Below are positions 12,787 to 42,439 of a DNA stretch of 64,000 nucleotides, piece after piece. This DNA comes from Paeniglutamicibacter terrestris. GTDB lineage: Bacteria; Actinomycetota; Actinomycetes; Actinomycetales; Micrococcaceae. The translations under genes and the position numbers were made by a program. Each line of letters starts with the position of its first letter. Position 1 is the first letter of the stretch. A model generated the notes under the pieces. That model saw nothing but the letters and a program-made list of their open reading frames with translations. It was not told the origin of the DNA and made no database searches. Location: assembly GCF_012271785.1 (NCBI RefSeq), contig NZ_JAAWVT010000010.1:1-64000 (forward strand), given 5' to 3'.

Positions 12787-13808
12787 CAGGCCAGCTCCAA
12801 CATGGCGGTGTTCAGCCCGGAGCCGACACCCATGCAGAGCACCCGATCGCCGGGCTTCAGGGTCTTGGCTTCTTGCGACAGTGTCATGGGTAGGGACGCG
12901 GGTCCGACATTGCCCCACTTGGGGAACGTGATCGGCACTCGGTCGCGGACCAGGCCCACGGCCTTGATGATGGCATTGGTGTAGGAATTTGATACCTGGT
13001 GGGTCACGTAGCGATCCATCGACTTCCAGTCCCACCCCGATTCGTGGGCCTCGTCCCAGGCGTTCACCACCAGTTCCAGACCGTTATCCAGTAGGCCCTT
13101 GGTGTCGGTGTACATGCCCGAGGGGCCACCAACACAGAGTTCGTGGTGCTCGGTACCCGCGCGGGACACGCCGCCAAGGATACGGTGTGCGCCGGGGTGA
13201 GCATCGGCCGGGCCGATCACCGCGGCAGCGGCTCCCGAACCCAGGGTGAGGGTGGCGAACTCGCGGAGGTAGTCCTCCCGGGTGGAGGTTTCGGCGTTGA
13301 GTCGAGCAAACGTGGTTTCCTGGGTCGGCTGGGCATCTTCGCCGGCGACCACGAGGGCGTATTTGATCTGTCCGGAGTCGATCATGTTGGCGGCCAGATT
13401 CATGCCATTCACAAAGCCGAGGCAGGCGTTGGCCACGTCGAAGTTCATCGCGGAGGAGGGCAAACCGAGTTCATGGTGGACCCTGGAAGCCACGGACGGT
13501 TCGAGGTTTTTGCGGGTGACGGAGGTATTGATCAGCAGACCAATTTGGCTCGGATCGATGCCGGCTTCGGCCATCGCTTTGCCACCGGCCTCAACTGCAG
13601 CATCATCAAAGGTGGTCCCCTCGGCCCACCACCGGCGTTCCATTACGCCCGCAACACGTTCGAGCAATCGTTTTGAGAGGCGCAGCCGTTTCAGGCTAGG
13701 GGCCAGGCGTTCGTCAAAGGCCTTGGAGGTCATGACCACCGGAGCTTGCACGCTGGTGACGGCAAGAAGAGCCGAGTTATGGTGCCGAAACGTTGCGTTG
13801 CCGTTCAA
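12783..13808 (-). CDS. oleA: OleA, acyl-CoA head-to-head condensing thiolase
   Basis: OleA joins two fatty acyl-CoAs by non-decarboxylative Claisen condensation to a 2-alkyl-3-keto acid, the first step of long-chain olefin synthesis. The 341-residue thiolase-fold protein has the nucleophilic Cys129 in NACLGFVNG, a THQVS motif (catalytic His), FPKWGNVGPASLP and the C-terminal GVGSGLNTAMLEL. The start is a TTG preceded by AAAGG at good spacing; the N-terminus NGNATFRHHNSALL matches the family better than the internal ATG 25 codons in. It heads oleA-oleBC-oleD. Confidence 0.93.
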   Translation of the reverse strand: MNGNATFRHHNSALLAVTSVQAPVVMTSKAFDERLAPSLKRLRLSKRLLERVAGVMERRWWAEGTTFDDAAVEAGGKAMAEAGIDPSQIGLLINTSVTRKNLEPSVASRVHHELGLPSSAMNFDVANACLGFVNGMNLAANMIDSGQIKYALVVAGEDAQPTQETTFARLNAETSTREDYLREFATLTLGSGAAAAVIGPADAHPGAHRILGGVSRAGTEHHELCVGGPSGMYTDTKGLLDNGLELVVNAWDEAHESGWDWKSMDRYVTHQVSNSYTNAIIKAVGLVRDRVPITFPKWGNVGPASLPMTLSQEAKTLKPGDRVLCMGVGSGLNTAMLELAW

Positions 13809-28470: not shown

Positions 28471-28809
28471 CATGACTTGCCTTAGTGCCGCGGCATCTGG
28501 CCTATCTCCCGTCGTGGGGAATCCTCGTGTCGCTGAACAACTCGGGCATTCGGGCTGACCCCTGGATCCGCCGCCCGTGACCATCGTGGCCAGACGTGAG
28601 TCGGAGGGTCTGTAGCTCGATGCTGTGATCCCCGTCCGGCGGCGGCGAGCTGAAGAACCTGCTGGAAGTGATGCACCGAACACCTGCAGGTTTTCTTGCT
28701 ACGTTCCTGTTTCAGTCCTGTTCCTTTGCTGCGGATTTCTTGCCGTTGAGTTGAGATACCCATGTCAAAGTTGAAAAACAGCAAGGAAACACGATCAGGG
28801 GAGGACCCG

Positions 28810-29958
28810 ATGCGTCACGAAAACACCATTGAAGCAAGGAATCTCGCTTCAATATTGCAGGCTTCCAATGCGGAGTCCTCCCGCGCTTCACACCGGGCCA
28901 CTGGCGGCGTGGTAACCGTGCTGGTACCGGCACACAATGAATCCGAAGCAATCATTGAGACCCTGGAATCGTTGGGACAACAAACCCGACGTCCAGACCG
29001 GGTGATCGTCATTGCCGATAACTGCACCGATAACACGGAGCAACTTGCCCTGGCTCAGGGTGCGGAAGTCATCTGCACGGTGGGCAACACGGACAAGAAG
29101 GCCGGCGCGTTGAACTTCGCGCTCGGCCGACTGCTCGAGGGAGCTGACCCGGATGACCTGATCCTGGTCCAGGATGCGGACTCGCAGCTGGCGCCAGACT
29201 TCATCGAGAACGCGGTCAGCCATCTCGGTTCCGACGACAAGCTCGGTGCGGTTGGCGGCGTGTTTCGCGGCGGTCCGGGCGGAGGCTTCGTCGGCCACCT
29301 ACAGCGCAACGAGTATTCCCGATACGCCCGGGACGTCAAGCGCCTGAATGGGAAATGCCTCGTCGTGACCGGAACAGCAGCGCTGTTCCGGGTGCGGACG
29401 CTGCGGGGCGTCTCGCTGGCCAGAATCCAGGGCTCGCTGCCGGCGGGCAACGGACGCGGCGGGGTCTATGACACCTCGGTGCTGACTGAAGACAATGAAC
29501 TTTCCTTCGCACTACTCACCCTGGGATTCAACATCCTTTCGCCGGCCGACTGCACCCTGGTCACCGAGGTCATGCCGACCTGGCGCGAGCTGTGGGCCCA
29601 ACGCCTGAGGTGGAAAAGGGGTGCGGTGGAAAACTGCGTGCAGTACGGCTGGACCAAGGTCACCCGACCCTACTGGGGGCGCCAACTCCTGTCCATGGTC
29701 GGCGTACTGGTCACCGTGGCGTACTTGGCCTCGATCGCCTACGCAGTGGGGTCGGGAGCAGGACTTCACCTCCATGCCTTCTGGATGGCGGTGACCGGAG
29801 TGTTTGTCCTCGAACGGGTCGTGACAGTGCGGCTCAGGGGATGGAAATACATGCTGTTGGCGGCGACCATGTACGAAACGGTCATTGACCTCTTCTTACA
29901 GGCTGTCCACGCCAAGGCATACATGGATGCAATGTTTAACAAGAAAAAGGTTTGGTAG
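28810..29958 (+). CDS. Processive GT2 glycosyltransferase (polysaccharide synthase type)
   Basis: The 382-residue family-2 glycosyltransferase likely polymerises an exopolysaccharide while moving it across the membrane. Visible motifs are VLVPAHNESEAI, IADNCTDNT, VQDADSQL (DxD), VVTGTAALFRV, LTEDNELS (TED) and QRLRWKRG (QxxRW), the last being typical of processive synthases. Three to four C-terminal membrane segments follow (LLSMVGVLVTVAYLASIAY and others). The ATG at 28810 has a strong GGGGAGG site; an ATG 48 bases earlier is less likely. A 54-codon gene begins 4 bases after the stop. Confidence 0.88.
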   Translation: MRHENTIEARNLASILQASNAESSRASHRATGGVVTVLVPAHNESEAIIETLESLGQQTRRPDRVIVIADNCTDNTEQLALAQGAEVICTVGNTDKKAGALNFALGRLLEGADPDDLILVQDADSQLAPDFIENAVSHLGSDDKLGAVGGVFRGGPGGGFVGHLQRNEYSRYARDVKRLNGKCLVVTGTAALFRVRTLRGVSLARIQGSLPAGNGRGGVYDTSVLTEDNELSFALLTLGFNILSPADCTLVTEVMPTWRELWAQRLRWKRGAVENCVQYGWTKVTRPYWGRQLLSMVGVLVTVAYLASIAYAVGSGAGLHLHAFWMAVTGVFVLERVVTVRLRGWKYMLLAATMYETVIDLFLQAVHAKAYMDAMFNKKKVW

Positions 29959-29962
29959 AAAA

Positions 29963-30127
29963 ATGTACAACAACCCAACGATCCCCATGGCCGCAGGCGC
30001 CGGTTCGGCGACCCTCGCGATGACTGGTGCGGGACAAATATTCTGGTTCGCCCTGGCAGGCTTCGCCATGCTGGCCCTCGGCCTGGCCATCAAACGGATC
30101 GTCCCGGTCCGCGCGCGCAAGTCCTAG
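29963..30127 (+). CDS. 54-residue membrane protein with LAxTG sorting-like tail
   Basis: The small protein has a short polar N-terminus, then LAMTG (residues 18-22), a hydrophobic stretch IFWFALAGFAMLALGLA and the positive tail KRIVPVRARKS. That is the three-part layout of a class E-type (LAxTG) sortase signal, but with almost no exported portion and no separate signal peptide. It starts 4 bases after the glycosyltransferase stop and is surely co-translated with it. It may instead be a small membrane subunit of the synthase. Function unknown. Confidence 0.75.
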   Translation: MYNNPTIPMAAGAGSATLAMTGAGQIFWFALAGFAMLALGLAIKRIVPVRARKS

Positions 30128-30143
30128 GTACACCACTGGCTCT

Positions 30144-30194
30144 TGATGGCGCCGGGAACCGTAGTCAATTGACCAGCGATTCCCGGCGCCATCA
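30144..30194. terminator. Shared hairpin between convergent genes
   Basis: A perfect 15-bp stem (30144-30158 with 30180-30194, arm TGATGGCGCCGGGAA) and a 21-base loop lie between the small-protein gene and the GH16-like gene, which converge here. No T tract follows on either strand. Confidence 0.6.
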
Positions 30195-30199
30195 GCGGG

Positions 30200-31339
30200 T
30201 TAAGACACCGGAGCGGTGGCCGCCGAGTACTTGGACACCGTCGTGTAACCGGTCTTGGAACCCGTGACGCGGACCTTGATGGTGTCCCCGGCATCGATGG
30301 CCGCGAGCTTGTAGGTCTTGGCGGTGGCCCCGGAGATGGCGGCTCCCGAGCGGTACCACTGGTACTTCAGGGTGGTGCCCGAGGTCCAGGTGCCGGGGTT
30401 CGCGGTGAGCGTGTTTCCGGTGATAAGTGTCCCGCTGATTGTTGGTGTCGGCGCGGTGAGCGTACTTAGGGGAGCATAGGAGAAGTCGCGGATGACCACC
30501 GTCTCGGGCGCAACATGCAACGGGTCACCGCCGCCTCCGCCGGTGACCCACAAGTTAAAGTGGACGGCTTCCTTGGCCGGAATCGGAACCGTGGCGCCTT
30601 GCATAACGGTTCGCTTGAGTAGCGTCCCGGTGAAACCCGTGCCGGCATAGGTCTCAAAGGTTAACTTGGATGGTTCCCAGAAAAGCCGGTGCGTCGTCAC
30701 CACATTGGTCGTGGTGGGAAAGGTGATGGTGCTATTTCCCTCGCCCGGTGGCAGCAAGGCATCGAACCAGTAGCCGTGGCCTTGGGTCACCGGCCAGTTC
30801 TCGCCATAGGCTCCGCCACCTCCCCACGCGGACGCCTCGCACAGATCAATTTCGTTGTAGCCCGGATCCGCCTCGGGGTCGTAGGTGAATAGGCATCCCC
30901 AGACGACTTCGGGCTGCAGGGCGCTGACGTTCTTGGCGACGGTGGTGCTGTAGGTTCCATAGCCGAAACCCTCCCGCGTTGACTGGATCTCCGCGCCGGC
31001 CGGCGCCGAGCCGGTGGGGTTGGACAGCTTCAGGGTGACATATCCGTTGGCATCCGGGCTGCTGACATTCGCCGGATCGAAAGCACCGTTGAACTGCGGT
31101 CCCCCGCTCCAGAAGCGCTTCTGCCAGTTGAAGCCCTTCCATTCAAAACTGCCGACCGGTCCGGGATCCTCCGCCATCTGCACGGTCACGGCCGCCCGTG
31201 CAGGAATGGCGCCCATCGCTAGGCACAGGCCGGCGGCCAGCAGCAGGCTGAGTGCGCGTGGGCCCGTGGCCCAATGCCCCCGTCCGGGAGGGAGCACTGG
31301 GAGTTTCTTTGGGACCAGCGCATTGACCGTTCGTGACAT
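30200..31339 (-). CDS. Secreted GH16-like protein with C-terminal Ig-like domain
   Basis: The 379-residue exported protein has a long signal peptide (hydrophobic LSLLLAAGLCLAMGAIPARA at about 30-49). A jelly-roll domain (about 50-290) carries YNEIDLCEAS, matching the glycoside hydrolase family 16 catalytic pattern E-I-D-x-x-E. The last 80 residues are an Ig-like repeat (ISGTLITGNTLTANPGTW ... YQWYRSGAAISGATAKTYKL) common on actinobacterial surface proteins. It is probably an endo-acting beta-glucanase or exopolysaccharide-trimming enzyme. It faces the glycosyltransferase unit convergently, so a shared polysaccharide is plausible but inferred. Confidence 0.8.
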   Translation of the reverse strand: MSRTVNALVPKKLPVLPPGRGHWATGPRALSLLLAAGLCLAMGAIPARAAVTVQMAEDPGPVGSFEWKGFNWQKRFWSGGPQFNGAFDPANVSSPDANGYVTLKLSNPTGSAPAGAEIQSTREGFGYGTYSTTVAKNVSALQPEVVWGCLFTYDPEADPGYNEIDLCEASAWGGGGAYGENWPVTQGHGYWFDALLPPGEGNSTITFPTTTNVVTTHRLFWEPSKLTFETYAGTGFTGTLLKRTVMQGATVPIPAKEAVHFNLWVTGGGGGDPLHVAPETVVIRDFSYAPLSTLTAPTPTISGTLITGNTLTANPGTWTSGTTLKYQWYRSGAAISGATAKTYKLAAIDAGDTIKVRVTGSKTGYTTVSKYSAATAPVS

Positions 31340-31610: not shown

Positions 31611-32513
31611 TCAGGTGAAAACCGGGGAATTTTTTGGCACCAGCACCTTGAGGGCTGCGGGCAGGATCGTGATCGTTGCCGGCAGCCGGCCGATATTTTC
31701 TCCGTCGGCAAAGATGTCCAACGGCTTGCTGGCGTCGATGGTGATCACTCGGCCGCGGGTGAAGGAGACGTTTTCCTGGCGCAAATGGGTGCCCCGGTAG
31801 GAGCGCAGGAAGGTCAGGACCACGCCCATGATGCCGGCCCTGCCCAGGGTGACGATGTCCAGCAGGCCGTCGTCGACCGTGGCCTGCGGACAGATGCGCA
31901 GCCCTGCGCCGTACTGCCCGACGTTGCCCACGGCGACAAACCAGCCCGGAACGCTGCTTCTCACCCCGTCCACCTCGAGCGTGAACGTGACATTGCGCCA
32001 TTCGGCGAACGCCCGCAGCCCGCCGTAGAGATAGACGAATGGTCCGAGGTTGATCCGTACTCTGTTGCCGTAGTCATTGGCCAGCGCGTCGAAACCGACG
32101 TTGGCGACGCCTAAGTATGGACGGCCGTTGACCAGCCCCAGATCCATGTCGCGCACCACCAGCTGCGAAAGGCCCCTGACGGTCCGCACCGGGTCCAGGC
32201 CCAGACCGATGCGGCGGATCGTGTCGTTCCCACGGCCCCCAGCCAGAGGCAGCAGCACGGCTCCGGATTCTTTGGCTCCGGCGGCCGTTGCGCCGAGGAA
32301 CCCGTCCCCGCCCAGCGCCGCTATCAAGGATCCGGGTGCCGCTGTGCGTGCCCTCTGCGTGGCTTCGGTAAGGTTTTCGGTCAGGTGCACGGTGGGGGTG
32401 TATCCCGCCGCGTGCAGGGCGGCGGCGGTTTGCTCCCAGAGCCTGCGGCCGCGGCCGCGGCCCGAGGTCGGGTTGACTAGTAGCAGGGCGGGGCCGGGGG
32501 CGGGAGGCTTCAT
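31611..32513 (-). CDS. dagK: Diacylglycerol kinase-family lipid kinase
   Basis: This 300-residue soluble lipid kinase (DagK/YegS/LCB5 fold) phosphorylates diacylglycerol or a related alcohol with ATP. The nucleotide-binding N-domain has LLLVNPTSGRGRGRRLWEQ, IAALGGDGFLG (GGDG motif) and LAGGRGNDTIRRIGL. The beta-sandwich C-domain has VGNVGQYGAGLRICPQATVDDGLLDIV and IFADGENIGRLPATITILP. The ATG overlaps the glpD stop by four bases, so it is the third gene of the tetR-glpD-dagK operon. It fits phosphatidic acid (or alkyl analogue) formation in glycerolipid metabolism. Confidence 0.92.
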   Translation of the reverse strand: MKPPAPGPALLLVNPTSGRGRGRRLWEQTAAALHAAGYTPTVHLTENLTEATQRARTAAPGSLIAALGGDGFLGATAAGAKESGAVLLPLAGGRGNDTIRRIGLGLDPVRTVRGLSQLVVRDMDLGLVNGRPYLGVANVGFDALANDYGNRVRINLGPFVYLYGGLRAFAEWRNVTFTLEVDGVRSSVPGWFVAVGNVGQYGAGLRICPQATVDDGLLDIVTLGRAGIMGVVLTFLRSYRGTHLRQENVSFTRGRVITIDASKPLDIFADGENIGRLPATITILPAALKVLVPKNSPVFT

Positions 32514-34084
32514 TCGGTGGTTCCTGTGGCGAGTTGGGTGTCGGCGGCCAGAGCCAGGATTTCAGCGGCGCGGCCGCGTGCCCTATCCGCGTCTTCGGGA
32601 ACGAGGGAAAGCCGGGTTCGGCGCTCAAGTAAGTCTTCGAGGCTTGTTGCAGCCTCAGCGCGGATGGCGAAGAGTAGTTCGGCCCCGGTGATCTGTGTGC
32701 CGGTAAAGAGCGGTTCGGCCAGCAGGCGGTGTGTTCCAGCGAGCTGGTGGACGGCCGGTGCCTCGGTGCCGTATTTGGCAAGCAGTCGTGCCGGTGCCTC
32801 CAGGGTGGCCAGCGTGGCGCGCGGTGCGGCGCCGATCAGCGGAAGCTTCTTGGTTCGGCTCGGAGTGGAGCTTCCGAGTCGAGCGGCGGCGGCGTCCACC
32901 GCGTCCTGCGCCATGCGGCGGTAGGTGGTGAGTTTGCCGCCCACCACGGTGATCGCTTCTCCGGGGACATCGCGCACCAGATGGTTGCGGGAAATATCGG
33001 AGGTGGGATCGGTTTCCCCGGGCCCGGAGGAGCGCACCAGCGGGCGCAACCCGGCAAACGAACCGACCACGTCGGAGCGTTGCAGCGGGACACCAAGTAC
33101 CCGGTTGATGGTGCCGAGCAGAAAATCGATGTCGTGCGTCGGCACGGCGGGGTGGTGGCCGTCCGCGGCGCGGTCCTCCTCATCGGTGAGCCCGATGTAC
33201 ACCACGTCATCGGGCTGGGGCAGCACAAATACGTACCGGCCGAAGTGCCCGGGCACCGCCACGGTGTGTGCTGCATGCGGGTTGCCCAGGCGTTCGGCGC
33301 GGACAACCAGGTGGGTGCCCCGGCTTGGGGTCATGGTCAGTAAAGGATCAAAATCCGCTGCCCATACACCCGCCGCATTGATGACCGTGCGGGCGTGCAC
33401 CGTCATGGCCTCACCGGTGCGGGTGTTGCTGGCCGCTACGGAGGTAGCGGTGATAGCGGTGGCGTGCACATCGCGCAGAACGTGGGCGCCAAGCCCGGCG
33501 GCGGTGCGCAGAACGCCCATGACCAGGCGGGTATCGTCGATGACCTGGCCGTCCCAGTAGAGTAGCCCGCGGCGCAGCCCCGGGTTATCCAGCGCCGGCG
33601 CCATGGCCGCGACGGCCTGTTTCGAAAGTAGTTGGGGCCGAGGCATGATACTGCTGCTCAGACCCGAGGCTCGGCGCAGCAGATCATAGAGTGCCACACC
33701 CACCGCGGCCGCGGCGGTTTCGGTGCGTTGGGTGCCGACGGTGTCCGGGATGATGAATCCCAGCGGGCGGATCAGGTGCGGGGCGATCGAATCCATGAGC
33801 CAGCGCCGCTCCATCGCTGATTCCCAGGCCACCGAGAAATCGCCCCTAGCCAGATAGCGTAGACCGCCGTGGATCAGTTTGGAGCTGTATCCGCTGGTGC
33901 CGGAGCCGAAGTCTTTGGACTCGAGTAATGCCACGGAGAATCCGCGACTCACGGCGTCCAATGCCACCCCGGCGCCGGTGATTCCGCCGCCAATGACCGC
34001 TACATCCACGGTGTGTGCGCGCAAGTGCTCCAGCGAGTGGAGCCGGGTGGCGTCGTTGATCCAGGTCTTATCCCCGGGGCTCAC
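32510..34084 (-). CDS. glpD: Glycerol-3-phosphate dehydrogenase (FAD, GlpD)
   Basis: The 524-residue FAD enzyme oxidises glycerol 3-phosphate to dihydroxyacetone phosphate at the membrane. The FAD Rossmann motif DVAVIGGGITGAGVALDAVSRG is followed by LLESKDFGSGTSGYSSKLIHGGLRYL, the GlpD signature. TPSRGTHLVV, YVFVLPQPDDVVYIGLTDE and VVGGKLTTYRRMAQDAVD follow, then an alpha-helical C-terminal cap. It overlaps tetR upstream and dagK downstream by four bases each. It would supply DHAP, the backbone needed by the divergently encoded alkyl-DHAP-synthase-like flavoprotein. Confidence 0.95.
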   Translation of the reverse strand: MSPGDKTWINDATRLHSLEHLRAHTVDVAVIGGGITGAGVALDAVSRGFSVALLESKDFGSGTSGYSSKLIHGGLRYLARGDFSVAWESAMERRWLMDSIAPHLIRPLGFIIPDTVGTQRTETAAAAVGVALYDLLRRASGLSSSIMPRPQLLSKQAVAAMAPALDNPGLRRGLLYWDGQVIDDTRLVMGVLRTAAGLGAHVLRDVHATAITATSVAASNTRTGEAMTVHARTVINAAGVWAADFDPLLTMTPSRGTHLVVRAERLGNPHAAHTVAVPGHFGRYVFVLPQPDDVVYIGLTDEEDRAADGHHPAVPTHDIDFLLGTINRVLGVPLQRSDVVGSFAGLRPLVRSSGPGETDPTSDISRNHLVRDVPGEAITVVGGKLTTYRRMAQDAVDAAAARLGSSTPSRTKKLPLIGAAPRATLATLEAPARLLAKYGTEAPAVHQLAGTHRLLAEPLFTGTQITGAELLFAIRAEAATSLEDLLERRTRLSLVPEDADRARGRAAEILALAADTQLATGTTE

Positions 34085-34689
34085 GATTCGACTCCTGCCG
34101 TAGGAGCAGCGGAGGGTGTGAGGTGGCGGGTGATCATCGTTTCGAGCTCCACGAGCGATTCTTCGAAGTCACCAGTCTTACGCAGCAGTCGAGCCGAGAG
34201 CGCCACACCTTGCAGGGCGAGCAGCAATGTTGTGGCGGTAGCGGGTGTCGCCCGAATACTCTCATCCGCCAGCCCAGCGGTTATCAAGCCCTGGAACTCA
34301 TCAAGGATCAGTTGCTGGCTCGCACCAAATCTGTCGGTCACATAGGGGATGAGGAACTCGGGGTCACGCTCGGCAATGGAGTCTAGAAGTTCGGAGGTGG
34401 CAAAGACGCGCACGCAGTGAATGGCGAAATGCACTAACTCGTCGCGACCGGTGCCAGTGGGGGAGCTCGAGCGGACATCGGCAGCGACGGTGCGGAACTC
34501 CCGGGTCAGGGTGGCCAATACCGCGTTTTCAACCGAGCCCATGCGCCGGTAGAAGGTCATGCGGGAGACCCCTGCCCGTTCGGCAATATCGTTGGCGGTA
34601 GTCCGACGTACCCCGTGGCGGACTACCGACTCGCGTGTGGCGATCAGGAGCTTGTCATCGCCGGGGCTACTGGTACGTTGTGACGGCAT
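34081..34689 (-). CDS. TetR-family regulator of the glycerolipid locus
   Basis: This 202-residue TetR-type repressor has the helix-turn-helix region TTANDIAERAGVSRMTFYRRMGSVENAVLATL in the first 60 residues. A ligand-binding helical domain follows, which is likely to sense a lipid or acyl compound given its neighbours. The ATG at 34689 (PSQRTSSPG) is preferred over a GTG nine bases upstream. Only 17 bases separate its start from the divergent flavoprotein start, so both promoters must overlap and are likely controlled together. Confidence 0.88.
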   Translation of the reverse strand: MPSQRTSSPGDDKLLIATRESVVRHGVRRTTANDIAERAGVSRMTFYRRMGSVENAVLATLTREFRTVAADVRSSSPTGTGRDELVHFAIHCVRVFATSELLDSIAERDPEFLIPYVTDRFGASQQLILDEFQGLITAGLADESIRATPATATTLLLALQGVALSARLLRKTGDFEESLVELETMITRHLTPSAAPTAGVES

Positions 34690-34706
34690 GTGTAACACTG
34701 TATCCC
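34690..34706. promoter_or_regulatory. 17-base divergent start-to-start gap with GTGT-A-ACAC dyad
   Basis: The whole non-coding gap between the two divergent start codons is 17 bases and contains GTGTAACAC, a perfect 9-base dyad. One or both transcripts are probably leaderless or start inside the opposing gene. A TetR site here would control both arms. Confidence 0.4.
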
Positions 34707-36428
34707 ATGGTGACGCAGAACACAGAGGAGATTCCCCGCTCGGTTTGGTACGGGTGGGGAGACCCCTCTCGAGCCCGGCCGCTGACTGAGGGTGCCCTCG
34801 AATACCTGCGCACCACCCTGGGCCTTCACAGTGTGGATCTCTCCCATCCGCCCGTTGACTTCGCTGAAGTACACGTTGGCGAGGGGCATCTTGATGGCGA
34901 AGTACTGGAGGAATTGCGCGAGCTGCTCGGGGACGCTCACGTTTCTACTGACCAAACCGAACGTCTACTCCACTCGGGCGGCAAGAGCACCCCGGACCTG
35001 CTGCGCATCCGCGCCGGGGACGCGCGGCAAGCACCCGACGCGGTGCTCTTCCCCGGCAGTGAGACGGACGTCCGTCGGATTCTGGAATTGTGCGTTCGGC
35101 GGCGTCTGGCCGTGGTGACCTTTGGCGGCGGCACCTCCGTGGTCGGGGGCGTAGAACCCCTGCACGGGCAGCTCGAGGGTGTGCTCACGCTGGATATGCG
35201 GCGCATGGACAAATTATTGAAGTTCGATGGGCTCTCGTGCACCGCTACCTTTGAGGCGGGCATCCGGGGACCGGCGATCGAGGCAGCACTGGAACCGCTG
35301 GGCTTCACGCTTGGTCACTTCCCACAAAGCCATCAGGAGGCGACCCTGGGTGGCTACCTGGCAACACGTTCCGCCGGACAAGCCTCCACCGGTTACGGCC
35401 GCTCCGATGATGTGGTCAAGTCCGCGCATGTAGAAACCCCTGCGGGTCCGCTCGACGTTGGCTCGCTGGCCCCCGGAACCGCGGCCGGGCCGAAGCTGCT
35501 AGATGTGATCCTGGGATCCGAGGGCACTCTTGGCGTGATCACCTCCGCCACCGTAGTCATTCAACCGTTGCCCCAACATAAGAGTCACGGCGCGTGGTCT
35601 TTCCCGTCGTTTGCCGCCGGGGCCGAGGCCCTGCGGAAGCTGCGCCAGGAGGGTGTCCGCGGGGACATGCCCCATGTCTGCCGGCTCAGCGATACCGACC
35701 AGACCGCAGCGACCTTCAAGCTCGGAGGTACCAAGACCGCGGTTCTGGCCGCGTACCTCGGGCTGCGCTCTCAGCAAAGTCCCGCGCTGGCTCTCTTTCT
35801 GTGGGAGGGAGAAGCTCGGGAAACGGCCGCCCGCCGGCGGCGCAGCGCGAGGATCCTGCGCGCCGCCGGCGGGATCCCGCTCGGTCCCATGCCGGCGCGG
35901 GCCTGGGAACGCGGGCGCTTTTCCGGACCCTATCTGCGTGATGAATTGCTCACTCGCGGCGTGTTGGTTGAGACCCTAGAAACTGCCGCCACGTGGAGTC
36001 AACTCCAGAGCACCTACACCGCGGTGCGCGGCGCGATCCTTGACGCGCTGGCGGCCAACGGCGGTTCCGGATATGTGCAGACGCACATTTCCCACGTCTA
36101 CCCCGACGGCGCCTCGCTCTATTTCACCTTCCTCGGTGGCTTGGAGCGCGATGGGCTGGCACAAAATGCCCGTGTCAAGAAGGCGGCCTCCGCGGCCATC
36201 GTCGCGGCCGGGGCCACCATCACCCATCATCACGGGGTGGGCATCGAGCACGCCCCCTACATGAGCTCAGAAATCGGCAGGCTGGGACTTGAGGTGTTAA
36301 GAAGGATCAAGGAAAGTCTTGATCCCACGGGCATCATGAATCCCGGAAAGCTCATCCCCGCAGCTACTGCCGAGGCACCGGCCGTCGGGGAAGCTTCCAG
36401 TGCATCACCACAAAAGGAGAAACCATGA
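34707..36428 (+). CDS. FAD-linked oxidase of the alkyldihydroxyacetonephosphate synthase family
   Basis: The 573-residue flavoprotein has a PCMH-type FAD domain with TFGGGTSVVGGVEPL, GHFPQSHQEATLGGYLATRSAGQASTGYGRSDD and VILGSEGTLGVIT. A cap domain ends in TITHHHGVGIEHAPYMSSEIG; the His cluster HHHGVG is the active-site signature of alkyl-DHAP synthase, which exchanges the acyl chain of acyl-DHAP for a fatty alcohol to make ether lipid precursors. The start ATG at 34707 lies 17 bases from tetR. Its stop overlaps the SDR start (ATGA). Some family members may be other FAD lipid oxidases, so the ether-lipid role is inference. Confidence 0.82.
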   Translation: MVTQNTEEIPRSVWYGWGDPSRARPLTEGALEYLRTTLGLHSVDLSHPPVDFAEVHVGEGHLDGEVLEELRELLGDAHVSTDQTERLLHSGGKSTPDLLRIRAGDARQAPDAVLFPGSETDVRRILELCVRRRLAVVTFGGGTSVVGGVEPLHGQLEGVLTLDMRRMDKLLKFDGLSCTATFEAGIRGPAIEAALEPLGFTLGHFPQSHQEATLGGYLATRSAGQASTGYGRSDDVVKSAHVETPAGPLDVGSLAPGTAAGPKLLDVILGSEGTLGVITSATVVIQPLPQHKSHGAWSFPSFAAGAEALRKLRQEGVRGDMPHVCRLSDTDQTAATFKLGGTKTAVLAAYLGLRSQQSPALALFLWEGEARETAARRRRSARILRAAGGIPLGPMPARAWERGRFSGPYLRDELLTRGVLVETLETAATWSQLQSTYTAVRGAILDALAANGGSGYVQTHISHVYPDGASLYFTFLGGLERDGLAQNARVKKAASAAIVAAGATITHHHGVGIEHAPYMSSEIGRLGLEVLRRIKESLDPTGIMNPGKLIPAATAEAPAVGEASSASPQKEKP

Positions 36429-37258
36429 ACCAAAGCATCGGAACCTTGGCCGGATCAACGGTGTTGATCACCGGAGCGGCGATGGGCATGGGCAGGATGT
36501 ATGCCGATCTCGCGGTACGTGATCACGCCAGCCATGTCATTCTCTGGGACATTAATGCCGAGCAGCTCGAGAAAGCCGCGGCTGAGTTGAGCGGTCAGGG
36601 CAGTGAGATTCACACACAGGTAGTAGACGTGGGTCGGCTCGAATCCATCGAGGCGGCCGCCAGTCAGGTGCGCAGCGGCGCCGGGGCGCCGGACGTGTTG
36701 ATCAACAATGCGGGGATTATTCGCGGTAAGTACTTTTGGGAACACGACCAGCGCACTGATATTGCTGCGACCATGAATATCAATGCGCTTGCGCTGATGC
36801 ATATCACTCGCGAATTCCTTCCTGCCATGATCGAACGCGGGCGCACCTCACGGATTGTGAATGTCGCGTCGGCCGCGGGGCTGCTTTCGAACCCAAGGAT
36901 GAGCGTGTATTCCTCCTCCAAGTGGGCGGTCATCGGGTGGAGTGACTCGTTGCGTCTGGAGTTGGAGCAGGCGGGGCATCGGCACATCAAGGTGACGACA
37001 TTCTGTCCCTCGTATATCAAGACCGGAATGTTCGAAGGAGTGCGTGGTCCACTATTAACTCCTTTGCTTGAACCGAAAGCTGTGACCGACCGAGTGTGGC
37101 AGGCCATGAAGGATGGTCAGCCCATGCTGATGATGCCCTGGACGGTGAAACTGAGCACCGCATTGCGCGGTGTGTTGCCGGTTGCCGCCTGGGACGTGGT
37201 GGCGGGGCGGGTCTTCGGGGTTTATAAGTCCATGGAGCACTTCACTGGGCGCCGCTAA
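36425..37258 (+). CDS. Short-chain dehydrogenase/reductase coupled to the AGPS-like gene
   Basis: This 277-residue classical SDR has VLITGAAMGMGRMYADLA (cofactor motif), NNAGIIRGKYF, IVNVASAAGLLSNPRMSVYSSSKWAVIGWSDSL with the Ser-Tyr-Lys triad (YSSSK), and a hydrophobic C-terminus that may touch the membrane. It is translationally coupled to the flavoprotein. A keto reductase here could reduce alkyl- or acyl-DHAP to the glycerol 3-phosphate form, which would complete an ether-lipid route with GlpD and the flavoprotein; that role is inferred from position. Confidence 0.85.
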   Translation: MNQSIGTLAGSTVLITGAAMGMGRMYADLAVRDHASHVILWDINAEQLEKAAAELSGQGSEIHTQVVDVGRLESIEAAASQVRSGAGAPDVLINNAGIIRGKYFWEHDQRTDIAATMNINALALMHITREFLPAMIERGRTSRIVNVASAAGLLSNPRMSVYSSSKWAVIGWSDSLRLELEQAGHRHIKVTTFCPSYIKTGMFEGVRGPLLTPLLEPKAVTDRVWQAMKDGQPMLMMPWTVKLSTALRGVLPVAAWDVVAGRVFGVYKSMEHFTGRR

Positions 37259-37353: not shown

Positions 37354-37375
37354 ACTAAGTTGTGCACAACTTAGT
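37354..37375 (+). promoter_or_regulatory. OhrR operator (perfect 22-bp palindrome)
   Basis: Half site ACTAAGTTGTG is followed directly by its exact complement CACAACTTAGT, ending 8 bases before the ohrR ATG. The AGTTGT core is the type of site recognised by OhrR. Position and symmetry strongly suggest peroxide-relieved autorepression of ohrR and probably ohr. Confidence 0.85.
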
Positions 37376-37383
37376 TGTGTGCA

Positions 37384-37836
37384 ATGATAATGAACATGTC
37401 AGTTGTTGATGAAATGGTCTGCTTTTCCCTCTACTCGGCCACGCGCGCCACCACGAGGGCATACACCGAGCTATTGGCCCCATGGGACCTCACCTATCCG
37501 CAGTACCTGGTATTGGTTGTCCTTTGGCGTGAAGGCGAGAAACCGGTACACGAACTGGGGGACATGCTCCAGCTCGATTCCGGGACGCTTTCGCCACTAT
37601 TGCGCCGAATGGAAGCCAAGGACCTGGTGGCGCGTCATCGTGCTTCAAAGGATCAGCGGATTGTCACCATCGCTGCCACGGCCCGTGCCGATGCACTGCG
37701 CGAAGAACTCGGGCACATCCCCGGGGTCATCGCACGCTGCACCGGACTGCCTGATCTGGCCGCCGCCCGCGAGTTGATCAGCACACTCCAGCAACTGACT
37801 ACCACCATGCGCAATGGTGTTCCGGCAGGTAATTGA
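37384..37836 (+). CDS. ohrR: Organic-peroxide-sensing MarR-family repressor OhrR
   Basis: The 150-residue MarR-type regulator carries VCFSLYSATRATTRAY, with the conserved N-terminal Cys that is oxidised by organic hydroperoxides. The winged-helix DNA-binding segment PVHELGDMLQLDSGTLSPLLRRMEAKDLV follows. Several ATG codons cluster at the start (37384, 37390, 37396); the first is given. The gene sits directly behind a perfect palindrome and 121 bases before ohr, so sensor and effector form one unit. Confidence 0.92.
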   Translation: MIMNMSVVDEMVCFSLYSATRATTRAYTELLAPWDLTYPQYLVLVVLWREGEKPVHELGDMLQLDSGTLSPLLRRMEAKDLVARHRASKDQRIVTIAATARADALREELGHIPGVIARCTGLPDLAAARELISTLQQLTTTMRNGVPAGN

Positions 37837-37957
37837 ATACCTGTTTACACTGCGCCGCTGTGAACCATGGCTGAAAAGTAGCCGTTTGATCAAGAACCAA
37901 CCACTAACTTCAGCGCCACGCGCTGAGCAAACCATCAACCGCTGAAAGGCAAACGCC

Positions 37958-38380
37958 ATGAACACTCTTTACACAGCCGAAGCACTCTCCACCGGCCAGG
38001 GACGTGAAGGACGAGTCTTCACTTCCGACGGTACCCTCGACGTGGCCATGACTCCACCGAAGGAATTGGGTGGCTCCGGAAACGGCACCAATCCAGAGCA
38101 GCTCTTTGCCGCAGGCTTTGCTGCCTGCTTCCATTCGGCATTGCAGCTCGTTGCTCGAACTCAAAAGGTCAAGGTGGAGAATTCCACCGTCGGCGGCCGC
38201 GTGCACTTCGGGCAACTAGAAGCCGGCGGCTACCAGCTGGCCGTTGAGCTCGAGGTCATCATCCCGGACATGCCCCACGAACAAGCTCAGGCTCTCGCCG
38301 ATGCGGCACACCAGGTCTGCCCCTACTCAAATGCGACCCGTGGCAACATCGAAGTAACGGTTCTGGTCTCCGATGATTAA
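37958..38380 (+). CDS. ohr: Organic hydroperoxide resistance protein Ohr
   Basis: This 140-residue thiol peroxidase reduces organic hydroperoxides. Both family cysteines are present, in FAAGFAACFHSAL and in HQVCPYSNATRGN, and the N-terminal LYTAEALSTGQGREGRVFTSDGTLDV is typical. The ATG follows GAAAGG. It lies downstream of ohrR on the same strand and ends in a long hairpin. Confidence 0.96.
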   Translation: MNTLYTAEALSTGQGREGRVFTSDGTLDVAMTPPKELGGSGNGTNPEQLFAAGFAACFHSALQLVARTQKVKVENSTVGGRVHFGQLEAGGYQLAVELEVIIPDMPHEQAQALADAAHQVCPYSNATRGNIEVTVLVSDD

Positions 38381-38861: not shown

Positions 38862-39015
38862 CCCACGACCCAATATCTGAGGCTTCGCCGGCATCGTTTT
38901 ATCCGACCCCTGCTTCTGCCGTTCCGGTCTCGAAAAGCCTGACTGCTTGTTGGAAAGGTGTGTCTATACTTGGCTCCAAGACGTGGGGATCGAAGAATTG
39001 CATCGGGGGAAATTA

Positions 39016-40194
39016 ATGCGCGTGCCGCAGCGTTCGGGGCAGCTATCCGTGAGCCATTTCGGGAAGATGGTTCTATGTCTGGCCGTCGTGTCTCTGGCCG
39101 CAACAGCCTGTACCCAGGTGGCGCCGCCGCGGGCCGACGGAAGCGACGGTGAAGCCACGATCATCCGCGTCATTGACGGCGATACGGTCGTGGCCGCTGT
39201 GTCTGGAAAAGAAACCACGGTTCGACTCTTGAACATTGATACCCCCGAAACTAAGGCGCCAGATCGGCCCGTGCAATGCCTAGGCAACGAGGCAACCACA
39301 TTCACCGAGTCGTTGCTGCGACCCGGTGACAAGGTAAACCTCGAGTACGACGTCACCCGCCTAGATCAATATGGGCGCACGCTTGCCGGCGTATATAAGG
39401 ATAAGAGTTTGGTAAATGCCGATATCGCCGCCGCCGGGCTCGGGGTGGCGGTGCTTTTTGAACCCAATGATCGGTTCTACGCAGAGGTGCTGGCTGCCCA
39501 AGAAGAAGCTGAAGAGAACAGTGCGGGTCTCTTTGCAACGAACATTGAGTGCACGGTTCCGGCCATGGCAGACACTGCGGTGGAGGGTCTGAGCGCACTG
39601 TCCGATACCGTCCCCGCTACCGCAGCGGATGTTGACTCGTCCTTGACCGTTGTTACTGCCGCCATCGCGGTGGGCAAAGCCAAGAGCAAGACTCTCGGGG
39701 CACTCGCGGATTCTTCTGACGTGGCTGCCTCAGCCGTCTGGGCGGTGAAGAAGGTCAGCTATACCGCGTTGATCAATTCCGGTATGGAGCGAGCAACAAC
39801 AATTAGAACCAAACTCGTTGCCAAACAAGCGGCGCTCGTAGAGGTCAAAAAGGAAAAGGCTGCGGAGGCAGCTCGGACCAAGGCCAAAGCAAAGGCCAAA
39901 ATTCAGGCGAAGGCCGAAGCTCAGGCCAGGGCCGAACGCATAGCGGTTGCCCAAGCGGAAGCCGAACGCACCGCGGTGGCGAAAGCCGCAGCTGAGCGCA
40001 AGGCAGCAGCTCAGCGGGCAGCCGAGCGCGAGGCCGCTGCGGCACGAGCGGCCGAACGTCGTCGTCAGGCGGCGCCACCAACGACGTACCGAGCGCCGGT
40101 GAAAGAAAAGAAGGACAGTGGTGGTTCATATCCTGGATATACCGGACCACGTTGTTATGCACCCGGCGGCCAAAGCTGGAAACCTTGCACATAA
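39016..40194 (+). CDS. Secreted thermonuclease (SNase-like) lipoprotein with long helical tail
   Basis: The 392-residue exported protein has a signal peptide ending in a lipobox-like AATAC, then a staphylococcal nuclease domain (about 45-175). All catalytic motifs are intact: VIDGDTV, VRLLNIDTPE and QYGRTLAGVY. It should hydrolyse extracellular DNA/RNA. A helical module, about 100 residues of Ala/Lys/Glu/Arg-rich coiled coil, and the C-terminal YPGYTGPRCYAPGGQSWKPC follow; the last is a Cys-containing ending common in actinobacterial nucleases. The ATG at 39016 follows GGGGGAAA. A diverged paralogue lies 1.1 kb downstream. Confidence 0.88.
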   Translation: MRVPQRSGQLSVSHFGKMVLCLAVVSLAATACTQVAPPRADGSDGEATIIRVIDGDTVVAAVSGKETTVRLLNIDTPETKAPDRPVQCLGNEATTFTESLLRPGDKVNLEYDVTRLDQYGRTLAGVYKDKSLVNADIAAAGLGVAVLFEPNDRFYAEVLAAQEEAEENSAGLFATNIECTVPAMADTAVEGLSALSDTVPATAADVDSSLTVVTAAIAVGKAKSKTLGALADSSDVAASAVWAVKKVSYTALINSGMERATTIRTKLVAKQAALVEVKKEKAAEAARTKAKAKAKIQAKAEAQARAERIAVAQAEAERTAVAKAAAERKAAAQRAAEREAAAARAAERRRQAAPPTTYRAPVKEKKDSGGSYPGYTGPRCYAPGGQSWKPCT

Positions 40195-40867: not shown

Positions 40868-41338
40868 CTAATTTCCTCCACTGCTCTACCGAGCGGGGCG
40901 AAGATACCGCAAAGCGCGACCTAGAATTCACTGTCAAGAAAATCCACCGCAGCGACGTAGTCAGGCTCGCTGATTCGGTCCCGCCCGGCGGGAAAACGAC
41001 GTGTCACGGCGCCCCTTAATACGAAGTCAACCTTCGGCCTGACGGTTCACCAGCATCATGTTGTGAGCGTTAAGCATTGTGCAATGCATCATGAAGGTGG
41101 CTGCGTTGTCACTTCTCAATGTCTGATTTTTGGTTACCGTCAGGTAAGAAAACTGCTGGTGTCACACGGGAACCACGGAGGATTCTTGTTGGTCACCGTG
41201 AATCCGGTACGGGGAAATGTTTATATTTCTCCTGCGTCGGAGGGGTGTTCAAGGACGCCGTTGTGACGCTAGACTGTTCGCTTGTTCGCTCATACCTTCA
41301 ACCTATGTTGGGAAATAGCTTTGCTCGCGCAATCAAAA
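40868..41338. other. Intergenic stretch with a palindrome, no gene supported
   Basis: About 640 bases lie between the PIN ATG and the nuclease paralogue. GCATTG-TG-CAATGC at 41074-41087 is a perfect 14-base dyad flanked by CATCATG on both sides (41056 and 41087 regions). It could be a promoter element of the paralogue, but no coding frame is convincing. Confidence 0.45.
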
Positions 41339-42439
41339 ATGGCCTTTGGGGCTCAGGGTCGACTGGTCACGATAGCTGCCAGCGTGCTCGCCTTCGGCCT
41401 CATTGCCACGGGTTGTACGCAGACTCCATCGCAGGCGAAGGACTCGGATCAGGTCCATACGATTGTCCGTGTGATCGACGGTGGCACCGTCTTGGCCAAC
41501 GTATCTGGCATAGAAACCACCATTAGACTTTCGAACGTCGACACACCCGCTCCGGCGGCAAAGAAGCAGCCGGCCGAATGCCTGGGTGCCGAGGCTGCGG
41601 CGTTTACCAAGACCCTGCTCGCCCCCGGGGACGTTATTAAACTTGAGTATGACGTGAACCGACTGAACCCATTAGGGCAAACACTTGCCGGGGTTTACAA
41701 GGGTGGGAAACTCGTCAACGCTCAGATTGCCGCCGGGGGCTACGGCGTGGCCGTCACCTATGAACCCAACGACCGATTTTACGATTCGGTCAACAAAGCA
41801 GAACAGAATGCTAAAAAGGCTTCCAAGGGACTGTACGGCAAGGTCGCTAAGTGCACCGTCGCTTCCCGCGTTGCCGATGCGGTGGCTCAGCTGAATGCCC
41901 TGGATCCGAAGATACCATCATCATATTCCGAGGTTGAGAAGGCCTTGGAAAAGGTGAACAAAGTTATCGATCAGGCCAAGGCCAAGGCCGTTGAGCTGCG
42001 CTTGCTGGATTCCACGGGCGATATCGTTAGTCGGGCCATTTGGGACGCTCGAAAGTCTACCGACGAGCCGGTGATCACCGCGGCAGTCAAGCGAGCCACT
42101 GACATCGCGGACAACCTCTCTGCAAAACAGGCCTCGATCATTCGGGCCCAGAAGGCAGCAGAAGCTAGGGCCAAGGCAGCAGCTGAGGCCCGAGAAGAGG
42201 CGCGCCAAGAAGCACGTGACAAGGCCAAGGCCAAAGCCAAGGCGGAAGCCGCTGCTGAAAAGAAGGCTGACGAAGCAAAGGCTAAGGCCGAAGCGAAAGC
42301 TAAGGCCGAGGCAAAGAAGAAAGCCGAAGAAGCCAAGAAGAAGGCTGAAGAGGCTAAAAAGAAGGCTGCGCTGGAGAAGAAGAAAGCTGCCGAGGCTCTC
42401 AAAAAGAAAGCTGAAGAGCTGAAGAAAAAGCAAGGTTAA
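41339..42439 (+). CDS. SNase-like lipoprotein paralogue with degenerate active site
   Basis: This 366-residue exported protein is built like the upstream nuclease: signal peptide with lipobox (IATGC), SNase domain, helical module with shared DRFYDSV/VEKALEKVNKVIDQAKAKA features, then a very long Ala/Lys/Glu coiled coil ending ELKKKQG. Key residues differ. VIDGGTV replaces DGDT, VDTPAP replaces DTPE, and LGQTLAGVY replaces YGRTLA. Three residues needed for metal binding and catalysis in staphylococcal nuclease are therefore lost while the fold is kept. It is probably a non-catalytic nucleic-acid- or wall-binding protein. Confidence 0.83.
   Translation: MAFGAQGRLVTIAASVLAFGLIATGCTQTPSQAKDSDQVHTIVRVIDGGTVLANVSGIETTIRLSNVDTPAPAAKKQPAECLGAEAAAFTKTLLAPGDVIKLEYDVNRLNPLGQTLAGVYKGGKLVNAQIAAGGYGVAVTYEPNDRFYDSVNKAEQNAKKASKGLYGKVAKCTVASRVADAVAQLNALDPKIPSSYSEVEKALEKVNKVIDQAKAKAVELRLLDSTGDIVSRAIWDARKSTDEPVITAAVKRATDIADNLSAKQASIIRAQKAAEARAKAAAEAREEARQEARDKAKAKAKAEAAAEKKADEAKAKAEAKAKAEAKKKAEEAKKKAEEAKKKAALEKKKAAEALKKKAEELKKKQG

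What the first reader, a model, noticed from the sequence alone, without database searches (positions are those of the whole stretch)
31611..37258. Compact locus that may make ether-type glycerolipids
TetR, glpD and dagK overlap on one strand. Seventeen bases away on the other strand, an alkyl-DHAP-synthase-like flavoprotein (with the HHHGVG signature) overlaps an SDR. Together they could make DHAP, swap an acyl for an alkyl chain, reduce the ketone and phosphorylate a diradylglycerol. The order resembles M. tuberculosis Rv2249c (glpD1), Rv2250c (TetR), Rv2251 (flavoprotein) and Rv2252 (diacylglycerol kinase), so an ancient actinobacterial lipid module is likely; the ether-lipid product is my inference.
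Basis: partly seen in the sequence, partly recalled or inferred. Interest (0 to 1): 0.65.

Follow-up and report, generated by a model that had tools for sequence, protein, structure and literature searches.

The report
Lipid kinase–GlpD–AGPS ether-lipid gene cassette
A conserved, self-regulated gene block of soil actinobacteria pairs an ether-lipid enzyme with a lipid kinase and a glycerol-phosphate dehydrogenase, a partnership that fits taking ether lipids apart better than making them; no activity has been measured.

Summary
In detail: dagK, glpD and tetR overlap by 4 bp each on one strand; 17 bp away an AGPS-type flavoprotein overlaps an SDR by 4 bp. The flavoprotein is AGPS by fold (Z 40.9 to mammalian AGPS) and residues: R326, R411, Y472 and H507-509 match the catalytic set and are invariant in 12 aligned sequences. 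The block is ancient: 59 of the 80 best named loci hold GlpD-TetR|AGPS-DagK, 4 the window's order. An operator motif lies near AGPS in 68 of 80; its full palindrome sits only at this locus in 13 of 13 locus-bearing genus genomes. But synthesis partners are missing: no strong PF07993 (fatty-acyl reductase) match in those 13, while a sister genus has a synthesis-type cluster, reductase-SDR-acyltransferase-AGPS, without GlpD or DagK matches. A second cassette (transporter, glycerol-kinase-like, GlpD-like, AGPS-like, alcohol dehydrogenase) looks catabolic. Best reading: kinase and GlpD feed AGPS, most likely towards ether cleavage. Direction is inferred, not shown.

The parts
31611..32513 (-). dagK: lipid kinase of the YegS/Rv2252/BmrU kind, locus-linked group, motif GGDGFLG
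   Evidence: Pfam DAGK_cat 62 bits and YegS_C 146 bits; NCBIfam TIGR00147 118.3 bits, just under its cut-off 118.65; PDB 2qv7 5e-21; tree
32510..34084 (-). glpD1: FAD-dependent glycerol-3-phosphate dehydrogenase family, one of two copies in the genome
   Evidence: Pfam DAO and DAO_C; below the two NCBIfam aerobic glycerol-3-phosphate dehydrogenase cut-offs, 256 of 360 and 240 of 352; the other copy, at C23, is 33% identical
34081..34689 (-). tetR: local regulator
   Evidence: Pfam TetR_N 33.3 bits; divergent, palindrome at its start
34674..34702 (.). putative operator palindrome TACnnTGTGACn7GTnACAnnGTA, spans the TetR start codon and ends 4 bp before the AGPS ATG
   Evidence: once in the window; only at this locus in 13 of 13 locus-bearing genus genomes, absent from the 2 without the locus; right-half motif in 68 of 80 named loci
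34707..36428 (+). AGPS-type flavoprotein (alkylglycerone-phosphate synthase fold and active site)
   Evidence: PDB 2uuu 4e-85, 4bby 1e-59; Z 40.9 to 5ae3; residues invariant; AGPS group 100/98
36425..37258 (+). SDR closest among solved structures to 17-beta-HSD 11/13; a lineage addition to the block
   Evidence: PDB 1yb1 1.6e-41; relatives occur away from AGPS in other genera

Best explanation
The locus is an inducible, self-contained cassette for 1-O-substituted glycerols. Proposed steps: (1) DagK phosphorylates a 1-O-alkylglycerol to 1-O-alkyl-glycerol-3-phosphate; (2) GlpD1 oxidises C2 and gives 1-O-alkyl-DHAP; (3) the AGPS enzyme binds that DHAP lipid, forms its known flavin-DHAP adduct and expels the sn-1 chain as a fatty alcohol, water (or a fatty acid) then releasing DHAP (or acyl-DHAP); (4) in this lineage the SDR oxidises the alcohol; (5) TetR holds both arms shut at one operator until a pathway lipid appears. 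Shown here: gene identities, AGPS fold and active site, conserved linkage, joint absence in two relatives, a single conserved palindrome, no strong PF07993 reductase match. Inferred: all substrates, the direction of the AGPS step, the SDR role, TetR binding and its inducer. My confidence that kinase and GlpD act with AGPS as one unit is about 0.85; that the physiological direction is ether cleavage, about 0.5.
For: Linkage: GlpD-TetR|AGPS-DagK in 59 of 80 named loci plus 4 in window order; the kinase stays in the block although it changes sides. Joint presence: 13 of 15 genus genomes have AGPS and GlpD1, 12 of those 13 the locus kinase; the 2 without AGPS lack GlpD1 and that kinase but keep another GlpD and another lipid kinase. 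Local control: the palindrome, up to 2 mismatches, occurs only at this locus in 13 of 13 genomes; right-half motif near AGPS in 68 of 80 named loci against 2 hits in 970,588 bp elsewhere in them. In a BCG table the four homologous genes carry values of 2.1 to 2.3, though Rv2247 and Rv2248 beside them rise too (PMC4564863, table passage, column meaning not read). The order kinase, GlpD, AGPS uses every conserved enzyme with no missing step. Missing synthesis partners: no PF07993 match at E<=1e-20 in 26 of 28 window-type family genomes; in G107 it is a CAR-like 1194-aa ORF, in G123 it was not read; the best own-genome match looks like OleD. Contrast: in 15 of 15 genus-g6 genomes with an AGPS hit a strong PF07993 match lies 1.8-3.1 kb away; SDR mapped in 7 of 7 loci read, acyltransferase confirmed by Pfam in one, no tblastn match to the window's GlpD, DagK or TetR. 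Analogue: cassette 2 joins MFS, glycerol-kinase-like, GlpD-like, AGPS-like, GlpP and Zn-alcohol dehydrogenase in 4 loci, a shorter set in 3 more. Chemistry: the AGPS adduct scheme (PMC3509576, passages) should by microscopic reversibility allow an alkyl group to leave (my inference).
Against: No AGPS is shown here or in the passages read to cleave ethers. The matching residues are those of a synthase and do not set direction. Rv2252, the kinase of the mycobacterial block, is cited as a diacylglycerol kinase for phosphatidylinositol lipids (PMC3229680, passage). GlpD1 keeps the usual GlpD motifs and I found no sign that it takes a 1-O-alkyl substrate (inconclusive). The block has no lipase, transporter or aldehyde dehydrogenase. 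No SDR match in 73 of 80 named loci, and only distant ones in 3 more. G001 lacks the locus kinase, G107 and G123 show none in the stretch read. AGPS of the same tree group stands unlinked in deeper classes. PF07993 is not a clean marker: weak matches occur in all 15 genus genomes (best 68 bits, only the own-genome one read), and at E<=1e-20 it rings in E. coli. Rv2250c is listed elsewhere as a regulator of iniBAC, against a purely local role (PMC4564863, passage). AGPS without a FAR1 gene is noted for Leptospira (PMC9131029, passage), so its lack alone proves nothing. AGMO and HMG-CoA-reductase-like alcohol formers were not searched.
Confidence: 0.5

Rival explanations
1. De novo ether-lipid synthesis: GlpD makes DHAP, an unlinked enzyme acylates it, AGPS swaps acyl for a fatty alcohol, the SDR reduces alkyl-DHAP, and DagK feeds phosphatidic acid.
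For: AGPS fold and active site; an SDR beside it; three PF01553 acyltransferases in the genome could include a DHAP acyltransferase.
Against: No strong PF07993 reductase match; no acyltransferase in the window block; a synthesis-type cluster in the same family and the Myxococcus operon with AGPS have reductase and acyltransferase in place of GlpD and kinase (PMC9131029, passages, which also say that loss of that AGPS lowered ether lipids only a little); the g6 SDR fits another model best and most named loci have no SDR match.
Confidence: 0.2
2. Synthesis by a detour: DagK phosphorylates monoacylglycerol, GlpD1 oxidises the lysophosphatidic acid to acyl-DHAP, and AGPS swaps in a fatty alcohol from outside. 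This uses the same kinase-GlpD-AGPS order without a DHAP acyltransferase.
For: Explains the conserved kinase and GlpD and keeps AGPS in its known direction.
Against: Needs an external fatty alcohol; most loci have no reductase in the block for the alkyl-DHAP product; cassette 2 looks like an uptake and breakdown operon.
Confidence: 0.15
3. The AGPS-like enzyme does other DHAP- or glycerolipid chemistry, for example remodelling tied to phosphatidylinositol lipids through the kinase; no ether bond is involved.
For: Rv2252 is cited as a diacylglycerol kinase of the phosphatidylinositol route (PMC3229680, passage).
Against: The AGPS group and catalytic residues are kept; the locus is absent from 2 of 15 genus genomes, unlike a core phospholipid step; a single local palindrome.
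Confidence: 0.15

Closest known systems
Alkylglycerone-phosphate synthase (AGPS/ADPS; mammalian and Dictyostelium enzymes)
   Same: Fold over 519 residues at 2.1 A, Arg/Arg/Tyr/HHH catalytic set, N-terminal stretch that aligns to AGPS chains but not to the D-lactate dehydrogenases listed
   Different: More distant than the AGPS of a synthesis-type cluster (L301): 290 against 352 bits to 2uuu and 206 against 273 to 4bby; separate group in the tree; partners are kinase and GlpD
Mycobacterial glpD1-TetR-flavoprotein-DagK block (Rv2249c, Rv2250c, Rv2251, Rv2252)
   Same: Same four families, divergent layout, related operator motif in named Mycobacterium loci; gene order of the Rv block as in PMC4564863 (table passage)
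   Different: Window kinase sits on the glpD side and an SDR was added
Bacterial ether-lipid synthesis operons (Myxococcus MXAN_1676-1674 as described in PMC9131029, passages; genus g6 clusters found here)
   Same: AGPS
   Different: Those pair AGPS with a fatty-acyl reductase and an acyltransferase; the window block has neither
Alkylglycerol monooxygenase (AGMO)
   Same: Proposed outcome, ether cleavage of alkylglycerols
   Different: AGMO uses O2 and tetrahydrobiopterin and was described as the only known cleaving enzyme (PMC3617469, abstract and passages; PMC7911779, abstract start in listing); the proposed route needs neither

Membership tests
AGPS/ADPS flavoenzymes | VAO-type FAD domain plus FAD-linked oxidase C domain | tested here: met
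   PF01565 102.6 bits and PF02913 128.5 bits
AGPS/ADPS flavoenzymes | Catalytic Arg, Arg, Tyr (R352, R447, Y508 of Dictyostelium) and HHH | tested here: met
   R326, R411, Y472, H507-509, counted by hand on the alignments to 2uuu and 4bby (catalytic set from PMC3509576 passages; the R419H and Y578F chains 4bc7 and 4bca change at the columns of R326 and Y472); invariant in 12 and in 29 aligned sequences, window included; in a set of 30 with remote paralogues R326, Y472, H508 and H509 stay invariant, H507 nearly, R411 not
AGPS/ADPS flavoenzymes | Overall fold closer to AGPS than to other VAO enzymes | tested here: met
   Z 37.5-40.9 to AGPS entries, 33.2 to the next family
AGPS/ADPS flavoenzymes | Makes alkyl-DHAP from acyl-DHAP and a fatty alcohol | not testable with these tools
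   needs an assay
De novo ether-lipid synthesis locus | Fatty-acyl reductase of the PF07993 type, linked or in the genome | tested here: not met
   two own-genome matches, 50 and 22 bits, the first OleD-like; none at E<=1e-20. Other kinds of alcohol-forming reductase not tested
De novo ether-lipid synthesis locus | DHAP acyltransferase linked to AGPS | tested here: not met
   none among the block genes; three unlinked PF01553 proteins
De novo ether-lipid synthesis locus | 1-O-alkyl lipids in the cell | not testable with these tools
   needs lipid mass spectrometry
glpD1-TetR|AGPS-DagK block of Actinomycetia | Four related genes in one divergent block with the common operator motif | tested here: met
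   kinase on the other side
GlpD glycerol-3-phosphate dehydrogenase | NCBIfam equivalog cut-off | tested here: not met
   256.4 of 360 and 240.1 of 352; the broader family by Pfam DAO and DAO_C is met
YegS/Rv2252/BmrU lipid kinases | TIGR00147 cut-off | tested here: inconclusive
   118.3 against 118.65 bits; Pfam domains met

The most novel reading that the evidence does not exclude
Actinobacteria carry an oxygen-independent ether-lipid cleavage route: kinase, GlpD1, then AGPS run backwards with water or a fatty acid as acceptor, under a dedicated TetR. A second cassette with a glycerol-kinase-like enzyme does the same to small glyceryl ethers. The conserved mycobacterial glpD1-flavoprotein-DagK block would then be an ether-lipid salvage system.
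Probability: 0.42. Interest if true: 0.85.

Novelty: new variant of a known kind. Interest (0 to 1): 0.6.

Why it matters
Alkylglycerol ethers are described as cleaved by only one known enzyme, AGMO, which needs O2 and tetrahydrobiopterin (PMC3617469, abstract and passages). If AGPS works backwards in this cassette, there is an oxygen-independent route in soil and host-associated actinobacteria, and a conserved mycobacterial block gains a testable role. It also warns against reading ether-lipid synthesis from an AGPS gene alone, as a metagenome survey did with due caution (PMC11868695, passages): in one bacterial family the reductase-linked and the kinase-linked AGPS fall in separate groups.

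Tried and rejected
A substrate clue in GlpD1: I compared 98 locus GlpD with 13 other GlpD of the genus and 5 cassette-2 GlpD. Motifs seen in all three are kept; the 13 rows were cut short at the N-terminus by my start choice, so the list of differing positions says little. Inconclusive.

SDR as a fixed AGPS partner: rejected. In 61 family genomes 29 have a relative at E<=1e-40; 14 such places away from AGPS were read and none gave a match to another block gene.

Context of AGPS in deeper classes: neighbours of L198, L090, L102 and L103 (20 proteins) gave no clear pathway clue; L103 has an AMP-binding ligase two genes away.

A second kinase lineage in the window: rejected. The Leucobacter locus has two kinases; the tree puts one with the window kinase and the other with the other lipid kinase of the genus. 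Trees held mis-framed paralogue rows (genome-search loci are not turned to the match strand) and were replaced. L284 was read in a wrong frame and dropped.

Cassette 2 at large: 1 of 347 order genomes at E<=1e-90, so it is rare; the other loci came from genomes already in hand. Of the 15 stretches, 13 were taken for an AGPS-like gene and 6 of those have GlpD beside it; L273, L278, L280 and L283-L286 do not.

Operator motif: the pattern was drawn from the genus and two mycobacterial loci that are themselves among the 80.

Literature: searches (13 papers listed; 20 of 76 listed; 15 of 56 listed) showed no bacterial kinase-GlpD-AGPS cleavage route in their listings; some searches were the other searches. 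Only open-licence PMC papers are held. Ten papers were opened and passages read; none was read whole.
Full report
Observation. The five ORFs lie at the stated coordinates, the three junctions overlap by 4 bp and the two divergent start codons are 17 bp apart. Pfam gives DAGK_cat/YegS_C, DAO/DAO_C, TetR_N, FAD_binding_4/FAD-oxidase_C and adh_short. The genome is 4.34 Mb in 31 contigs. The closest named AGPS homologues that the scan shows are from an uncultured Micrococcaceae bacterium and two Arthrobacter (70-72% identity), so the window is from an Arthrobacter-like actinobacterium; its own records may be hidden from that scan.

The flavoprotein is AGPS. By sequence the nearest solved structures are Dictyostelium ADPS (2uuu, 4e-85) and guinea pig AGPS (4bby, 1e-59), with D-lactate dehydrogenase far behind (2e-33) (the species names are recalled). 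Counted on those alignments, R326 matches R419 of 4bby, R411 matches R515, Y472 matches Y578 and H507-509 match H615-617. The chains of 4bc7 (R419H) and 4bca (Y578F) differ from 4bby at the columns of R326 and Y472, which confirms two of them. In Dictyostelium the same places are R352, R447 and Y508, described as important for catalysis (PMC3509576, passages and a figure legend). All are invariant in 12 aligned sequences and in 29, window included. The AlphaFold model (mean pLDDT 82.5) matches AGPS chains at Z up to 40.9, rmsd 2.1 A over 519 residues, against 33.2 for the next family.

The locus is an ancient block. Of the best 80 named loci from a genome scan, 59 contain GlpD(-) TetR(-) AGPS(+) DagK(+) in that order, 4 have the window's order with DagK beside GlpD and an SDR after AGPS (one of these, Leucobacter, has a second kinase), and 17 have fewer or differently placed genes, some cut by contig ends. 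These 80 are the closest of at least 588 hits, so they are not a random sample. They include Mycobacterium, Nocardia, Rhodococcus, Streptomyces, Actinomadura and Microbacterium. In a BCG table the four homologous genes carry values of 2.28, 2.11, 2.16 and 2.20; neighbours Rv2247 and Rv2248 rise too and Rv2253 falls, and I did not read what the columns mean (PMC4564863, table passage). The kinase tree joins the window kinase to the kinase of an Actinomycetaceae block in the mycobacterial position (a long branch, place unsure) and to one Leucobacter kinase, and away from the other lipid kinase of this genome.

The genes travel together. Within the genus 13 of 15 genomes have AGPS and the same 13 have GlpD1; 12 of them have the locus kinase (G001 does not). 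G013 and G014 lack all three and keep another GlpD and another lipid kinase. In two relatives a gene of the block is damaged: the GlpD1 frame in G011 and AGPS in G002, which is interrupted by about 1 kb and has no SDR hit. G107 and G123 show no kinase in the stretch read. The block seems dispensable and separate from core glycerol and lipid metabolism.

One palindrome. TACnnTGTGACn7GTnACAnnGTA lies at 34674-34702, across the TetR start codon and 4 bp before the AGPS ATG. With up to two mismatches it occurs in 13 of 15 genus genomes, each time only at this locus, and in neither genome that lacks the locus; the reversed control pattern rang once in all 15. The right half, TGTGTNAYACTGTA with up to two mismatches, lies within -300 to +60 of the AGPS match start in 68 of 80 named loci, against 2 hits in 970,588 bp of the same loci elsewhere; the pattern was drawn in part from these loci. 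A TetR with a single, conserved, local site points to an inducible pathway. Against a purely local role, Rv2250c is listed elsewhere as a regulator of iniBAC (PMC4564863, passage). Binding was not tested.

Synthesis partners are missing. PF07993, the domain of fatty-acyl reductases, has two weak matches in the own genome, 50 and 22 bits; the better is an epimerase-like gene that I read as OleD of an olefin cluster (the Ole reading is recalled). Weak matches occur in all 15 genus genomes, at best 68 bits, and I read only the own-genome one. At E<=1e-20 none of the 15 has a match. Of 245 family genomes 28 carry a window-type AGPS (45% identity or more, my count); 26 of the 28 have no PF07993 match at E<=1e-20. 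G107 and G123 do; in G107 it is a 1194-aa ORF that looks like a carboxylic acid reductase, and G123 was not read. The domain is not specific: E. coli, one of 14 controls, also rings at that level. Other kinds of alcohol-forming reductase were not searched.

The contrast. In genus g6 all 15 genomes with an AGPS hit (32-36% identical to the window) have a 158-165-bit PF07993 match 1.8-3.1 kb from it. Of one such cluster, L301, Pfam reads: reductase with HAD domain, then divergently SDR, PF01553 acyltransferase and AGPS. Seven loci were mapped by tblastn: reductase, SDR and AGPS recur in all seven, and none gave a match to the window's GlpD, DagK or TetR. Nearby are a DUF4032 gene with a weak lipopolysaccharide-kinase match and, in L306, another TetR gene. 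No lipids of that genus were seen, so synthesis there rests on gene content. The published Myxococcus operon likewise joins AGPS to a reductase-acyltransferase protein, although loss of that AGPS lowered ether lipids only a little (PMC9131029, passages). The L301 AGPS is closer to the eukaryotic enzymes than the window's (352 against 290 bits to 2uuu). In the tree the reductase-linked AGPS form one group (100/100) and the kinase-linked rows lie in another (99/98) that they share with unlinked AGPS of deeper classes; both lie in one AGPS group (100/98).

A second cassette. Seven loci in six genomes (L272, L275-L277, L279, L282, L287) pair a GlpD-like with an AGPS-like gene; HHH is kept in the five checked. 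Four have the full run MFS transporter, glycerol-kinase-like FGGY kinase, GlpD-like, AGPS-like, GlpP antiterminator, Zn-alcohol dehydrogenase; L276 shows no match to the last two, L282 has a distant kinase nearby, and L287 is a short stretch. It is rare (1 of 347 order genomes at E<=1e-90). Its AGPS-like enzyme lacks the R411 match and is a remote branch, so it supports the logic, not the identity.

Mechanism. Kinase, then GlpD, then AGPS is a complete chain for a 1-O-alkylglycerol: phosphorylate, oxidise C2, form the flavin-DHAP adduct and expel the chain. The adduct scheme in which the alcohol adds last should also run backwards; ending with water gives DHAP and a fatty alcohol. That is my inference. 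Phosphorylation of alkylglycerol by a kinase is known in animals (PMC9131029, passage). The window SDR is nearest 17-beta-HSD 11/13 among solved structures and could oxidise an alcohol; the g6 SDR instead scores best with a mycolate reductase model (173 bits, cut-off 380). Counter-evidence is the citation of Rv2252 as a diacylglycerol kinase for phosphatidylinositol lipids (PMC3229680, passage) and the lack of any direct test of direction.

Verdict. The AGPS call is right, the de novo synthesis pathway is doubtful, and a cleavage or salvage cassette is the better-supported but unproven reading.

Noticed in passing
window 9170-13035 (-): A 357-aa NAD-epimerase-like gene downstream of a 945-aa ORF with hydrolase- and AMP-ligase-like parts; looks like the oleD and oleBC genes of long-chain olefin synthesis (recalled label, not tested).
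   Followed up: no
window 37375-38380 (+): MarR-type regulator nearest OhrR (125.7 bits, cut-off 200) followed by an OsmC-domain gene: perhaps an organic peroxide pair beside the block.
   Followed up: partly
window 38947-40194 and 41282-42439 (+): Two similar proteins with a staphylococcal-nuclease domain and long Ala/Lys-rich tails.
   Followed up: no
window 28762-31339: A GT2 glycosyltransferase and a 379-aa protein without Pfam match; both also flank the block in G011, G008 and G010.
   Followed up: partly
L301-L306, L104 (genus g6): Synthesis-type ether-lipid cluster (reductase-HAD, SDR, acyltransferase, AGPS) in a Micrococcaceae genus; worth a lipid analysis.
   Followed up: yes
L272, L275-L277, L279, L282, L287: Catabolic-looking cassette: MFS, FGGY kinase, GlpD-like, AGPS-like, GlpP, Zn-ADH; G195 has two copies.
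   Followed up: yes
L075 (G002) and L065 (G011): AGPS interrupted by about 1 kb and no SDR hit in G002; GlpD1 frame broken in G011, the closest relative.
   Followed up: no
L283, L285, L286: Another AGPS-like paralogue group with HHHAVG and RLLDP motifs in same-class and deeper genomes, without GlpD or kinase matches in the stretch read.
   Followed up: partly
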